Assembly (NCBI RefSeq): GCF_017163755.1
Contig: NZ_JAFIWC010000003.1
Span: 62,001 to 126,000, forward strand
Source: Xanthomonas sp.
GTDB taxonomy: Bacteria; Pseudomonadota; Gammaproteobacteria; Xanthomonadales; Xanthomonadaceae
Direction: 5' to 3'
Length of the DNA stretch: 64,000 nt
The notes under the pieces were generated by a model, which did not search any database, was not told the origin of the DNA, and was given only the letters and a program-made list of their open reading frames with translations. Positions 13,486 to 64,000 of this stretch are shown piece after piece. The position numbers and the translations under genes were made by a program. Within the stretch, counting starts at the first letter, position 1, and each line of letters opens with the position of its first letter.

Positions 13486-14121
13486 TCAAGCCGATGCCGG
13501 CGCCGGCATGGCCAACGCGGACAGCGCGATCGGCCGCGCCGGCGGCATGCCGCCGCGGCACTTGAGCACGCGCAGCTGCGCCGGCGCGGCATCGATGGCG
13601 ATGCGCAGCGCGGCCGGCGACGGATTGGCCGCGGCCTTCAGCGGCCGGTAGGCGAAGCCCAGCGCGCGCCCGGTCTCGGCCGCCACCTGCAGCCGGCGCA
13701 GGGTCTTGTCGCCGGCCAGCGCCGGCCAGCACAGCACCGCCGCGCAGCTGCCCGAGCGCAGGCATTGCTCGGCGGCCCAGGCCGCATCCGCACCGGCGCG
13801 CACGATCTGCAACTGCGCCAGCGCCACCCCGGCCTGCTCCCAGGCGCCGGGGTAGGGCAGGTACGGCGGATCGACCAGCACGATGCGCCCACCGCCCTGC
13901 GACAGCCGCGCCAGCGTCGGCCACAGCAGCTGCAGCTCGCCGATGCCGTCGGCGGCATGCAGCAGCTCGGTCAGCGCCATCTCCGGCCAGCCGCGCGCCG
14001 GCAGCGCCGCGTCGAGCGCGGCATGGCCGGTGGGCTGCGCGCTGGGCGGCAGCGCGGCGGGCTGGCCGCGCCAGATGCGCCGTTCGGCGAGCAGGCGGTC
14101 GAGGGCGACGACGGCGCCCAT
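13486..14121 (-). CDS. imuA: ImuA, mutasome accessory protein
   Basis: 211 residues. The ATG at 14121-14119 overlaps the lexA stop by one base (TGATG). The sequence follows the RecA/SulA-like ImuA pattern (PARGWPEMALTELLHAADGI, GGGRIVLVDPPYLPYPGAW) with a proline/alanine-rich C-terminus. In characterised systems ImuA is required, with ImuB and DnaE2, for damage-induced mutagenesis. Order lexA-imuA-imuB-dnaE2 with overlaps or tiny gaps indicates one SOS-regulated transcript. Older annotations call this family a SulA-like or RecA-like protein. Confidence 0.9.
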   Translation of the reverse strand: MGAVVALDRLLAERRIWRGQPAALPPSAQPTGHAALDAALPARGWPEMALTELLHAADGIGELQLLWPTLARLSQGGGRIVLVDPPYLPYPGAWEQAGVALAQLQIVRAGADAAWAAEQCLRSGSCAAVLCWPALAGDKTLRRLQVAAETGRALGFAYRPLKAAANPSPAALRIAIDAAPAQLRVLKCRGGMPPARPIALSALAMPAPASA

Positions 14122-14729
14122 CAGCCTTGCCGGATCAGGCCGCAGTACTGCCCCTCGATGGCGAAGTCCTGCCCCGGCTGGACCGCGATCGGCGCATAGG
14201 CCGGGTTGCGCGGCAGCAACTGGATGCGCCCGCCATCGTGCCGGTAGCGCTTGATGGTGATCTCCCCGTCCAGCCGCGCCACCACGATCTGGCCGTTGCG
14301 TGCGTCGGCGGCGCGCTGCACCCCGACCAGGTCGCCGTCGAGGATGCCGTCGTCGATCATCGAATCGCCCTGCACGCGCAGCAGGTAGTCCGGGCGCAGC
14401 GCGAACAGCGCACGGTCCAGGCGCAGTTGCTGGTCCAGGCCGATGTCGGCGCCGATCGGCGCGCCGGCGGCGACCCGGCCCAGCACCGGCAACTGCATCA
14501 GCCCGCTGCGCGCACCGGCCTGCGCCGGTCGCAGGCTGCGTGCCTGCTGCGGGACATGATCGAGCAGCCCGGCCTCGACCAGCGCCTGCACGTGCTTGCG
14601 CGCGGCGTTGCGCGAGGCGAAGCCGAAGCGCTCGGCGATCTCGGCCAGGGTCGGCGGCCGCCCGGCCTGCTCGGCGCAGTCGTGGACGTAGGCGAGGATG
14701 GCGGCGCGCTGGGGGGAGAGGGTGTTCAT
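14121..14729 (-). CDS. lexA: LexA repressor (LexA2 type)
   Basis: 202 residues from the ATG at 14729-14727. It has an N-terminal winged helix (residues about 1-65, TLAEIAERFGFASRNAARKH), a self-cleavage site A88-G89 (RVAAGAP), and the Ser-Lys dyad S123 (GDSMIDDG) and K160 (EITIKRY). It represses SOS genes until RecA-stimulated autocleavage. Being first in the mutasome operon identifies it as the second LexA (LexA2) known in xanthomonads. The operator palindrome ends one base before the start codon, leaving no room for a Shine-Dalgarno, so the message may be leaderless and autorepressed. An in-frame ATG three codons upstream lies inside the operator and is less likely. Confidence 0.95.
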   Translation of the reverse strand: MNTLSPQRAAILAYVHDCAEQAGRPPTLAEIAERFGFASRNAARKHVQALVEAGLLDHVPQQARSLRPAQAGARSGLMQLPVLGRVAAGAPIGADIGLDQQLRLDRALFALRPDYLLRVQGDSMIDDGILDGDLVGVQRAADARNGQIVVARLDGEITIKRYRHDGGRIQLLPRNPAYAPIAVQPGQDFAIEGQYCGLIRQG

Positions 14730-14747
14730 GGTGTACATTTGTACACC
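14730..14747 (-). promoter_or_regulatory. LexA2 operator
   Basis: A perfect palindrome, GGTGTACA-TT-TGTACACC, immediately upstream of the lexA ATG. The core matches the TGTACAAATGTACA-type site I recall for LexA2 of Xanthomonas. Its position over the presumed transcription start implies direct autorepression of the whole lexA-imuA-imuB-dnaE2 operon. Confidence 0.88.
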
Positions 14748-14788
14748 GTTGCAGACAAATTGGCGATGCGGGCCCACTGAATTGAAAT

Positions 14789-14922: not shown

Positions 14923-15279
14923 TCAGGTTCGTGCATCGGCCAGCGCTTTGCGCTTCGCCGTCGCCGATTTCTTGCCGGGTTTTTTCGCCTGGGCAACGAC
15001 CAGTCCGATCTGTATCTGATAACCCAGGGCCGTGGCGGCACGGCTCAGCGTATCCAGGGTCAGGCCGGTATCCGTTTCGTCCAGCACGCGATCCAGCTGC
15101 GAGCGACTGGTGTTCATGCGCCGGGCCAATGCGGTCTTGGTGAGCTTGGCTGCCTTCATGGCTTCGGCGACTTGCCACGCGATCACGCGCTTGGCCGCGA
15201 TGGAAGCAGCTTCTTCGAGGATGCCTTCCTCGGTGAGAAAGTCGTCGAAGCTGGATCCGATGTGGGTATTTCGACTCAC
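14923..15279 (-). CDS. HigA-like XRE-family antitoxin
   Basis: 118 residues if started at the GTG at 15279-15277 (VSRNTHIGSSFDDFLTEEG). The C-terminal half is a helix-turn-helix of the XRE/HigA type (KTALARRMNTSRSQLDRVLD) ending in a lysine-rich tail. In this family the antitoxin binds its toxin and represses the operon. The start overlaps the expected toxin stop (GTGA), the normal arrangement, but a +1 base in the upstream toxin puts both in one continuous 231-residue frame. Depending on slippage, the cell could make the antitoxin alone, a fusion, or both. Confidence 0.8.
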   Translation of the reverse strand: MSRNTHIGSSFDDFLTEEGILEEAASIAAKRVIAWQVAEAMKAAKLTKTALARRMNTSRSQLDRVLDETDTGLTLDTLSRAATALGYQIQIGLVVAQAKKPGKKSATAKRKALADART

Positions 15280-15618
15280 TGCATCACCTCGTCTCTGCGC
15301 CGTTTGGCTGTTTCGAGATCGGACTTCGGGGTCTTGTCCGATTTTTTTGACGATGCCGTGCAACAGCACCATGTCCGATTTCACGATCGTGAAAAAAATC
15401 CGCGCAATGCCCTCGGGGATCGTGCTGCGTATTTCCCAGAGGCGATGGTCCATCTTGCGCACCAATGGCATGCCCAGGGGCCAGCCCAGTTGCACCGTCT
15501 TCATGTCGCCGCCGATGGTCCTTCTTGCCTGGGCCGAGACTTCTTCCCTGAGCCAGTTCCGCACCGGCTCAGCGCCCGATGCAGAACGGTAGAAGCGCAC
15601 TTCCAGTGTGGTTTCCAT
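15276..15618 (-). pseudogene. HigB-like (DUF891/Gp49-type) toxin, frameshifted into its antitoxin
   Basis: The ATG at 15618-15616 starts a RelE/HigB-fold toxin (METTLEVRFYRSASGAEPV ... LVRKMDHRLWEIRSTIPEG ... VLLHGIVKK). After VKK the frame meets seven consecutive A's (T7 at 15342-15348 on the plus strand). Read as written it continues IGQDPEVRSRN and runs straight into the antitoxin. With six A's it would read SDKTPKSDLETAKRRRDEV and stop at 15278-15276, which is the usual family C-terminus. So either the toxin has been disarmed by a one-base insertion, or the homopolymer permits slippage, or the base is a sequencing error. Confidence 0.75.
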
Positions 15619-15627
15619 GCGCCATGG

Positions 15628-15645
15628 TGTACTTATTTATGTACA
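15628..15645 (-). promoter_or_regulatory. Possible toxin-antitoxin operator
   Basis: TGTAC and GTACA arms eight bases apart, within 30 bases upstream of the toxin start. This is a typical place for HigA autorepression. The arms resemble half-sites of the LexA2 operator, but the spacing is different, so I favour the antitoxin as the ligand. Confidence 0.4.
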
Positions 15646-15684: not shown

Positions 15685-16920
15685 TCAGCCCGGCGCCGCG
15701 CCGTCGGGCATCACTCCGGCATAGCGCGCGCGCGGGCGGATCAGCTTGCCCAGCGCCTGCTGTTCCAGCGCGTGGGCCAGCCAGCCCGACAGCCGGGCGG
15801 CGGCGAACAGCACCAGCGCATGGGCGGCCGGAAGCCCGTGGACGAGGCAGATCGCCGCCAGCATGCCGTCGATGTTCGGGCGCTGGCCGCTGCAGTCCTG
15901 CGCCGCGGCGATCGCCGCTTCCACATGCCGCAGCTGCGCGCTGCCGCCGCAGCGTTCGCGCAGCAGGCGCAGCACCTCGGCCGCGCGCGGGTCGCCGTCC
16001 GGGTAGAGGGCGTGGTGGAAGCCGGGCAGGTCGTCGCCGCGCTGCCAGCGTTCGGCGATGAAGGTGGCCGGGCTGGCGGCGTCCTGCGCGTCGCGCAGCA
16101 GGGCATGGGCGCGTGCGGTGGCGCCGCCATGGCGCGGGCCGGACAGCGCGGCCAGCCCCGCGCTGACGGTGGCGTGCAACGGCGCGCCGGTGGAGGCGAC
16201 CACGCGCGCGGCGAAGGCCGAGACGTTGAGTTCGTGGTCGGCGCACAGCACCAGCGCGGCGCGCACCAGTTCGGCGAAGCCGGCATCGCCCGGCCGCCAG
16301 CGGTCGGCGATCAGGCGATGCACCGGCCGGACGTCCGGCTGGATGCCGACCAGCAGTGCGGCGTTCTGCCGCAGCAGGGTGGCGGCGATCTCGCGGCGCA
16401 CGTTCGGCGCGGCGTTGAGCGGCTGGCGCAGCTCCAGGGCCAGCAGCGGGATGCAGGCCATGGCGCGCTCCAGCGGCGGCAGCGTGGTGTCGCCGGCCAG
16501 GGGCGCCACGCGCGCTGGCCAGGGGGCGGCGGGGGCGCCGGCGAACGGGTCTTCGTCCAGGCATTCCCACAGCAGCCGCGCGATGTCCTCCAGGCCGGCG
16601 CCCTCGCGCACCGCGGCCACCGCCGAGCGCCCGCGGTAGTAGGGGCTGTCGGGCCGGATCAGCGAGATGCGCGTCTCCAGCACCGGCAGGCCGCGGTCCA
16701 GGCTCTGCGCGGCGCCGCGCGCGGCACCGCGGCCGACGCGCTTGCGCTGGGCCAGCCGCTCCACCTCCGCGCGCAGGTAGGCGCGGCTGCGGTGGTCGGC
16801 ACCGGCGCGGGAACTGAGCAGGCCGCGGCTCACGTAGGCGTAGAGGGTGGCGCTGCTGATGCCGAGCAGGGCGCAGGCTTGCGCGGCGGAGATCAGGTTG
16901 CGGTCGGCGGCGGGAGGCAT
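15685..16920 (-). CDS. HTH-citrate synthase fusion protein
   Basis: 411 residues. An N-terminal MerR-like helix-turn-helix (about 8-60, AAQACALLGISSATLYAYVSRGLL) is joined to a citrate-synthase domain. The three regions that carry catalytic residues in citrate synthases are recognisable: SGPRHGGA, LPGFHHALYPDGD and NIDGMLA, each with the expected His/His/Asp. It is divergent from prpB across a 119-bp gap that holds a 17-bp palindrome. It may be an active enzyme, a sensor of 2-methylcitrate or acyl-CoA that controls the prp operon, or both. The regulatory idea is inference. No PrpR-type activator is visible nearby. Confidence 0.85.
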   Translation of the reverse strand: MPPAADRNLISAAQACALLGISSATLYAYVSRGLLSSRAGADHRSRAYLRAEVERLAQRKRVGRGAARGAAQSLDRGLPVLETRISLIRPDSPYYRGRSAVAAVREGAGLEDIARLLWECLDEDPFAGAPAAPWPARVAPLAGDTTLPPLERAMACIPLLALELRQPLNAAPNVRREIAATLLRQNAALLVGIQPDVRPVHRLIADRWRPGDAGFAELVRAALVLCADHELNVSAFAARVVASTGAPLHATVSAGLAALSGPRHGGATARAHALLRDAQDAASPATFIAERWQRGDDLPGFHHALYPDGDPRAAEVLRLLRERCGGSAQLRHVEAAIAAAQDCSGQRPNIDGMLAAICLVHGLPAAHALVLFAAARLSGWLAHALEQQALGKLIRPRARYAGVMPDGAAPG

Positions 16921-63826: not shown

Positions 63827-64000
63827 GGAGCCTAGAAACTCCGCTAACAGCGGTACCCACCTCCGACAAACTGGTGGGTTTTTTGTGTCTGCATGCTTCG
63901 CAGGTGCAACCGACGCGACGTTCTGCGTCGGGAGGGCGGTGAATACAACACCCGCAAGGGGAATAAGCCCGCCGGCTGTTAGCGGTTTCTAGCCTCCCGA
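63827..64000. mobile_element. Small inverted-repeat-bounded element at the island end
   Basis: The left arm GGAGCCTAGAAACT-CCGCTAACAGC (63827-63851) is matched in reverse by GCTGTTAGCGG-TTTCTAGCCTCC (63975-63997), about 23 bp each with a 2-base gap. Roughly 120 bp lie between. On the minus strand a start-less open frame reads ADTKNPPVCRRWVPLLAEFL before its stop, a peptide I recall as frequent in xanthomonad genomes. The nature of the element is uncertain; it may continue beyond the window. Bases 63738-63826 hold no gene. Confidence 0.45.
63855..63884 (+). terminator. Rho-independent terminator downstream of hsdR
   Basis: ACCCACC and GGTGGGT arms around an 11-base loop, followed by a six-T run. 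It lies inside the terminal inverted-repeat element and may belong to it as well as ending the restriction transcript. Confidence 0.75.

What the first reader, a model, noticed from the sequence alone, without database searches (positions are those of the whole stretch)
14923..15618. Toxin-antitoxin pair fused into one frame by an A7 homopolymer
The HigB-like toxin and HigA-like antitoxin form a single 231-residue frame. Removing one A from the run at 15342-15348 restores the canonical toxin end (LETAKRRRDEV then stop) and a GTGA overlap with the antitoxin start. A7 runs are known sites of transcriptional slippage, so the cell may make toxin, antitoxin and fusion from one message, or switch the toxin on and off by replication slippage. 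A simple inactivating insertion or sequencing error is the plain alternative.
Basis: partly seen in the sequence, partly recalled or inferred. Interest (0 to 1): 0.7.

Follow-up and report, generated by a model that had tools for sequence, protein, structure and literature searches.

The report
Toxin gene slipped into antitoxin's frame
A bacterial toxin gene of a toxin-antitoxin pair has changed reading frame at a run of seven identical bases and now runs on into its antidote gene; related species have broken the same toxin at a neighbouring run, which looks like ordinary repeated loss of the toxin rather than a designed switch.

Summary
One open frame (14923-15618, minus strand, 231 aa) holds a Gp49/RelE-type toxin and an HTH antitoxin; the A7 run at 15342-15348 is where the toxin's own frame is left. 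Five of 20 genus genomes carry the pair, beside lexA. G017 and G010 keep two overlapping genes; the window is fused at the A run; G015 and G009 lose the toxin frame at another run, a T run 43 bases upstream. The antitoxin is open in all five. None of 50 other loci with both genes is a single-frame fusion. The runs are not conserved, and the bridging frame is closed in G017 and three near outgroups, though open in others. E. coli RNA polymerase showed no detectable A7 slippage in a published reporter. Best reading: a recent slippage mutation, probably weakening or inactivating the toxin, in a module this genus keeps losing, antitoxin kept. Toxin and antitoxin look constrained between species, so the indels are young, reversible or miscalled; only reads can tell. 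Programmed slippage is not supported; reversible switching is not excluded. Single-gene gp49-HTH fusions are already known.

The parts
14923..15618 (-). single 231-codon frame: toxin domain then antitoxin domain
15349..15618 (-). toxin part read in its own frame, before and up to the A run (Gp49/RelE type)
   Evidence: PF05973 match; 85% identity over residues 1-111 to the G017 toxin
15342..15348 (-). A7 run (coding strand) in the Lys-Lys codons; frame change point
15276..15347 (-). stretch matching the relatives' toxin tail, but in another frame, closing with TGA 15276-15278
15392..15398 (-). T7 run (coding strand) in the RIFF codons; the run at which G015 and G009 lose the toxin frame
14923..15279 (-). 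HTH antitoxin, own GTG start at 15277-15279, purine-rich stretch upstream
   Evidence: 96% identical to the G017 antitoxin
15628..15645 (.). palindrome TGTAC-N8-GTACA just upstream of the toxin start, likely operator (inferred)
   Evidence: same place in G017 and G015, changed in G009 and G010

Best explanation
This is a chromosomal Gp49-HTH (HigBA-like) toxin-antitoxin module in which a replication-slippage indel in an A run, at the end of the toxin's catalytic core, has recently moved the toxin into the antitoxin's frame. Shown: the fused frame, the run, relatives with separate overlapping genes at the same site, an open antitoxin in all five carriers. Inferred: the fused product keeps the mapped active-site positions but loses most of the conserved last segment and carries the antitoxin in cis, so it is probably weak, dead or self-neutralised; the antitoxin can still be made from its own GTG and can still repress the promoter. 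The same toxin lost its frame at a second run in two related species, and sister species lack the module. The window thus shows one stage of repeated toxin loss, with A/T runs as weak points, rather than a programmed switch.
For: Relatives G017 and G010 keep two overlapping genes; G015 and G009 lose the toxin frame at the T run; antitoxin open in all five. 0 of 50 other loci with both genes is a single-frame fusion. 13 of 18 genus genomes with the neighbouring gene lack the pair, and four of the five carriers have a non-carrier as sister. The runs are not conserved. Three of the four residues invariant after the run in 18 toxins are lost in the fused frame. Precedents: integrase loss at homopolymers (PMC11023631, passages) and frameshifted hicAB toxins in S. 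maltophilia (PMC7650669, section 7).
Against: Between species the toxin looks constrained (dN/dS 0.07-0.33 before the T run), so it was not decaying for long; three frame changes on three tips is a lot for a constrained gene and would also fit switching or miscalled runs. The mapped active-site positions are kept, so the fused product may not be inactive. No reads, transcripts or proteins were seen. Repeated gain at one site, instead of repeated loss, is not excluded.
Confidence: 0.6

Rival explanations
1. Assembly or sequencing error: the run length was miscalled here, in G015 and G009, or in all three, and the genes are really separate.
For: All three frame changes lie in homopolymers, where miscalls are common; purifying selection on the toxin fits a working gene; no read data; G015 and G009 are single-contig assemblies of unknown platform.
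Against: In matched stretches 31 to 121 genes per comparison kept one frame, and the only point frame split beside an A/T run of six or more was this locus. Weak, since few such runs lie in the other genes (for example 10 runs of six or more in G015, 5 in G009). The window is a 75-contig draft, which suggests short reads (inference).
Confidence: 0.2
2. Reversible phase switching: the A and T runs change length by replication slippage and turn a functional toxin off and on in a population.
For: Run lengths differ among the five genus copies at two sites; toxin and antitoxin constrained; 7-base runs attract indels, less than 8-base runs (PMC11023631, passages).
Against: Runs are short for contingency loci (recalled) and are interrupted in G017 (T run), G010 and G009 (A run). 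Toxins elsewhere with runs of 7-8 at the same codons read in one frame (L062, L066, L068). No within-clone data.
Confidence: 0.1
3. A kept, working toxin-antitoxin fusion protein, self-inhibited in cis, as in other single-gene gp49-HTH modules.
For: 69 prokaryotic gp49-HTH fusions are tabulated, and some TA fusions are said to be functional (PMC11980606, passages). The fusion keeps the mapped active-site positions and a complete antitoxin.
Against: Found in one genome only; 0 of 50 other loci. Three of four invariant tail residues lost.
Confidence: 0.06
4. Programmed transcriptional or ribosomal slippage at the A7 run yields toxin, antitoxin and fusion from one message.
For: A hairpin follows the run (z -1.6 in the window, -2.1 in G017). 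cDNA sequencing found 0.39% insertions at an A7 run and 0.75-0.82% at T7 and T6 runs with E. coli RNA polymerase (PMC6260861, section 20). The bridging frame is open in G010, G015, G009 and several outgroups.
Against: No detectable reporter slippage below eight A and none by deletion on poly(A) (PMC6260861, section 19); known cases use longer runs, e.g. 11 A (PMC4256274, passages). Run not conserved. Bridging frame closed by a stop in G017, L020, L021 and L022. Hairpin not notable in G009 and G010 (z -0.2 and -0.1).
Confidence: 0.03

Closest known systems
Gp49-family (PF05973) HigB with HTH HigA, e.g. S. pneumoniae HigBA (PDB 6af3, 6af4)
   Same: toxin domain over the Pfam cut-off, toxin before antitoxin, HTH antitoxin
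   Different: two genes there, one frame here; weak sequence similarity (E 1.9e-9); all genus copies have Ile where SpHigB has catalytic Phe90
Single-gene gp49-HTH fusions (mBio 2025, PMC11980606, passages read)
   Same: toxin and antitoxin domains in one gene, in that order
   Different: here the fusion comes from a homopolymer indel, replaces the toxin tail, and is not shared by relatives
Frameshifted hicAB toxin genes in Stenotrophomonas maltophilia (PMC7650669, section 7 read)
   Same: toxin frame lost in some isolates of a related genus (kinship recalled)
   Different: another toxin family; one shared frameshift there, several run-length states here
Citrobacter rodentium tssM1 transcriptional frameshifting (PMC4256274, passages read)
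   Same: an A run separates two frames of one gene
   Different: 11 A with about 20-25% frameshifting there; 7 A here and no conservation of the run

Membership tests
Gp49-HTH (HigBA-like) type II toxin-antitoxin module | toxin domain PF05973 over Pfam cut-off | tested here: met
   44.3 bits against 23.9; G017 copy 67.1 bits
Gp49-HTH (HigBA-like) type II toxin-antitoxin module | adjacent HTH antitoxin, toxin first | tested here: met
   PF13744 and PF13443 over cut-off, residues 134-204
Gp49-HTH (HigBA-like) type II toxin-antitoxin module | two separate genes, translationally coupled | tested here: not met
   one frame in the window; separate and overlapping in G017 and G010
Gp49-HTH (HigBA-like) type II toxin-antitoxin module | toxin inhibits growth and antitoxin relieves it | not testable with these tools
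   no bench data
HigA equivalog (TIGR02607) | score over NCBI's cut-off of 47.7 bits | tested here: not met
   18.2 bits; G017 antitoxin 20.1 bits
single-gene gp49-HTH fusion | both domains in one open frame | tested here: met
single-gene gp49-HTH fusion | fusion shared by relatives | tested here: not met
   0 of 50 other loci with both genes
programmed transcriptional slippage site | conserved slippery run with conserved bridging frame | tested here: not met
   runs vary; bridging frame closed in G017, L020, L021, L022 but open in G010, G015, G009, L023, L024, L026, L027
programmed transcriptional slippage site | mixed transcript lengths | not testable with these tools
   no RNA data
phase-variable contingency locus | run length varies between related copies | tested here: met
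   five genus copies, one per species
phase-variable contingency locus | reversible variation within one clone | not testable with these tools
   one genome per species is held; no reads

The most novel reading that the evidence does not exclude
Short A/T runs in the conserved RIFF and KK codons act as fragile switches of a chromosomal TA toxin in this genus: cells flip between separate toxin, truncated toxin and toxin-antitoxin fusion by replication slippage, next to the lexA-imuA mutagenesis genes, while the antitoxin stays on.
Probability: 0.1. Interest if true: 0.65.

Novelty: new member of a known kind. Interest (0 to 1): 0.3.

Why it matters
It gives a natural series of one TA module at one chromosomal site: separate genes, frame lost at a T run, fusion at an A run, module absent. 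That makes the order of TA decay (toxin first, antitoxin kept) readable and shows one way in which single-gene TA fusions could arise. If reads showed mixed run lengths within a strain, it would be a TA module under slippage control; none of the papers listed by the searches had such a case in its title or the abstract start shown, but those searches see open-licence full texts only.

Tried and rejected
Phage origin: no match in 50,697 phage records; in viral contigs 17 stretches matched a pattern and none was confirmed. Plasmid origin: 35 plasmid records match, all under 60% identity. A second copy in its own genome: none found. RNA structure as a stimulator: a modest hairpin after the A run, not notable in the second sub-clade. 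Background frame errors: 3 to 10 split candidates per comparison; most were not resolved one by one, and many look like start-site differences or antisense frames. Structure of the fused protein: not obtained. Alignments A1, A2 and A4 were not used as evidence: A1 and A4 visibly misplaced pieces, A2 was seen as a summary only; A5 was made for the structure job and not used further. Taxonomy: the genus looks like Xanthomonas (Rfam sRNA-Xcc1 in the window; the rest recalled), but no record names the strain. One search gave dN/dS above 1 (1.66, 1.91) for the 63-nt toxin tail between G015 and the second sub-clade; with 1.5 silent and 7.5-8.5 replacement changes it is too short to weigh. Rows dropped: seven duplicate loci of the same genus copies, the window itself, and loci with only one of the two genes; the loci are those the tools returned (at most 30 per search), not every match.

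Full report
What is there. A single open frame of 231 codons runs on the minus strand at 14923-15618. Its first half is a Gp49/RelE-type toxin (PF05973, residues 26-110), its second half an HTH antitoxin (residues 134-204), both over Pfam's cut-offs. No second copy was found in its genome, a 75-contig draft. GC falls to about 0.6 across it. On the coding strand it holds an A7 run in the Lys-Lys codons (15342-15348) and a T7 run in the RIFF codons (15392-15398), with 43 bases between them. These are two of five A/T runs of seven or more in 184 kb sampled from this contig; shuffling the gene's own synonymous codons gives two or more such runs in 4% of cases, so codon use accounts for part of the excess.

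Relatives. Of 20 genus genomes searched, 5 (the window included) carry the pair; 29 of 395 family genomes and 56 of 369 class genomes match, many only through one weak domain. In the five, alignment and piecewise reading give: G017, interrupted T run and six A, full toxin overlapping the antitoxin start; G010, T7 and AAGAAG, full toxin overlapping the antitoxin; the window, T7 and A7, fused; G015, T6 and six A, toxin frame lost at the T run and stopped after 78 codons; G009, T6 and AAGAAA, frame lost at the T run and stopped 7 bases before the antitoxin start. The antitoxin is open in all five.

Is the fusion kept? Of 50 other loci in which both genes were found, none has them in one unbroken frame; L034 is a decayed copy in several frames, and L044 and L045 have both genes in the same frame but with stops. 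The runs are not kept either. Outside the genus, 8 of 55 toxin loci have an A/T run of six or more at the RIFF or KK codons, three of them of seven or eight (L062, L066, L068), and those three toxins read in one frame. The frame that would bridge toxin and antitoxin is closed by a stop after the run in G017 and 12 bases before the antitoxin start in the nearest outgroups L020, L021 and L022; it is open in G010, G015 and G009 and in L023, L024, L026 and L027.

Site and history. The pair lies between an HTH-citrate-synthase gene and lexA. Eighteen of 20 genus genomes have that neighbouring gene in full; 13 of the 18 have no pair there. In 10 of the 13 a lexA gene follows directly; in three (L078, L080, L088) no full lexA lay in the fetched stretch. 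On a tree of the neighbouring gene, G015, G017, G009 and G010 each pair with a non-carrier (support 0.83-0.98), and the window's copy branches alone. Silent divergence of the antitoxin within sub-clades (0.11-0.19) resembles that of the neighbouring gene (0.15-0.22); between sub-clades it is higher (0.60-0.77 against 0.27-0.33). This fits an old module lost many times, though repeated gain at one site is not excluded.

Constraint. Before the T run the toxin shows dN/dS of 0.07 (window/G017), 0.17 (window/G015), 0.14 (G017/G015) and 0.33 (G009/G010); the antitoxin 0.08, 0.21, 0.16 and 0.23 for the same pairs. The 63-nt tail differs between window and G017 by two silent changes only; between G015 and the second sub-clade it has more replacement than silent change (1.66, 1.91), on very few changes. 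The frame changes are therefore young, reversible or erroneous. In matched chromosome stretches, 31 to 121 genes per comparison kept one frame; the only point frame split beside an A/T run of six or more was this locus, and one other candidate with such a run (L151) was a long unaligned gap. Few coding runs of that length exist there, so this is weak evidence against miscalls.

What the fused protein may do. The only solved relative found by sequence is S. pneumoniae HigB. Of its active-site residues R68, R73, F90 and K92 (PMC7984235, passages), three map by that alignment to Arg64, Ile89 and Lys91; R73 falls in a gapped stretch, near an Arg73 that is invariant in 18 toxins. These positions are read before the frame changes. 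After the run, P97, L101, A104 and R107 are invariant in the 18 full toxins; the fused frame keeps only P97. In the genus copies the Phe90 position is Ile. The product may be weak, dead or inhibited in cis; this is inference. The antitoxin has its own GTG and a purine-rich stretch upstream, so it can plausibly be made alone.

Slippage. In E. coli, reporter slippage by the host RNA polymerase was not detected below seven T or eight A, nor by deletion on the poly(A) runs tested (PMC6260861, section 19). cDNA sequencing gave insertions of 0.39% at an A7, 0.75% at a T7 and 0.82% at a T6 run (section 20), so low-level products, above all at the T runs, are not excluded. A hairpin follows the A run (z -1.6 in the window, -2.1 in G017) but is not notable in G009 and G010. 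Programmed use at A7 is unlikely.

Known parallels. 69 prokaryotic gp49-HTH fusions are tabulated in PMC11980606 (passages). Frameshifted hicAB toxins occur in S. maltophilia isolates (three of eight cloned versions non-functional; PMC7650669, section 7). In the V. cholerae integrase, indels in an A8 run were the commonest route of loss under selection, with 6- and 7-base runs hit less (PMC11023631, passages). Outside the genus I looked at four broken toxin genes beside a kept antitoxin (L045, L048, L055, L058); none is broken at a run of six or more, against three of three in the genus. This is a small comparison made after the fact, and other partial toxin matches (for example L034, L059, L065) were not examined.

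Verdict. Ordinary in kind: a recent slippage mutation, or possibly a miscalled run, in a TA module that this genus seems to be losing. The run-length differences across five species make the switching idea worth a read-level check.

Noticed in passing
15685-16920 (-): An HTH_17/MerR-like domain precedes a citrate-synthase C-terminal domain in one 411-aa protein, divergent from prpB, acnD and prpF-like genes: perhaps a regulator of that operon.
   Followed up: no
13486-14777 (-): The pair lies directly upstream of lexA and imuA on the same strand, a mutagenesis cassette; whether it is co-regulated is unknown.
   Followed up: no
14732-14745 and 15628-15645: The only two TGTAC-N(2-10)-GTACA palindromes in the window (0.02 expected) lie at the lexA start and just upstream of the toxin start, with different spacings. 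A Caulobacter higBA linked to the SOS response appears in a search listing (PMC13384398).
   Followed up: partly
15349-15357 and relatives: Genus toxins carry Ile where most relatives and S. pneumoniae HigB carry Phe (HGIVKK against HGFVKK), a position that matters for activity there.
   Followed up: partly
63927-64000 (+): Rfam sRNA-Xcc1 match cut off by the window end (64.9 bits).
   Followed up: no
L097, L098, L099 (Burkholderia plasmid records): Related pairs lie in records that carry only three or four listed genes, so no annotation overlaps them.
   Followed up: no
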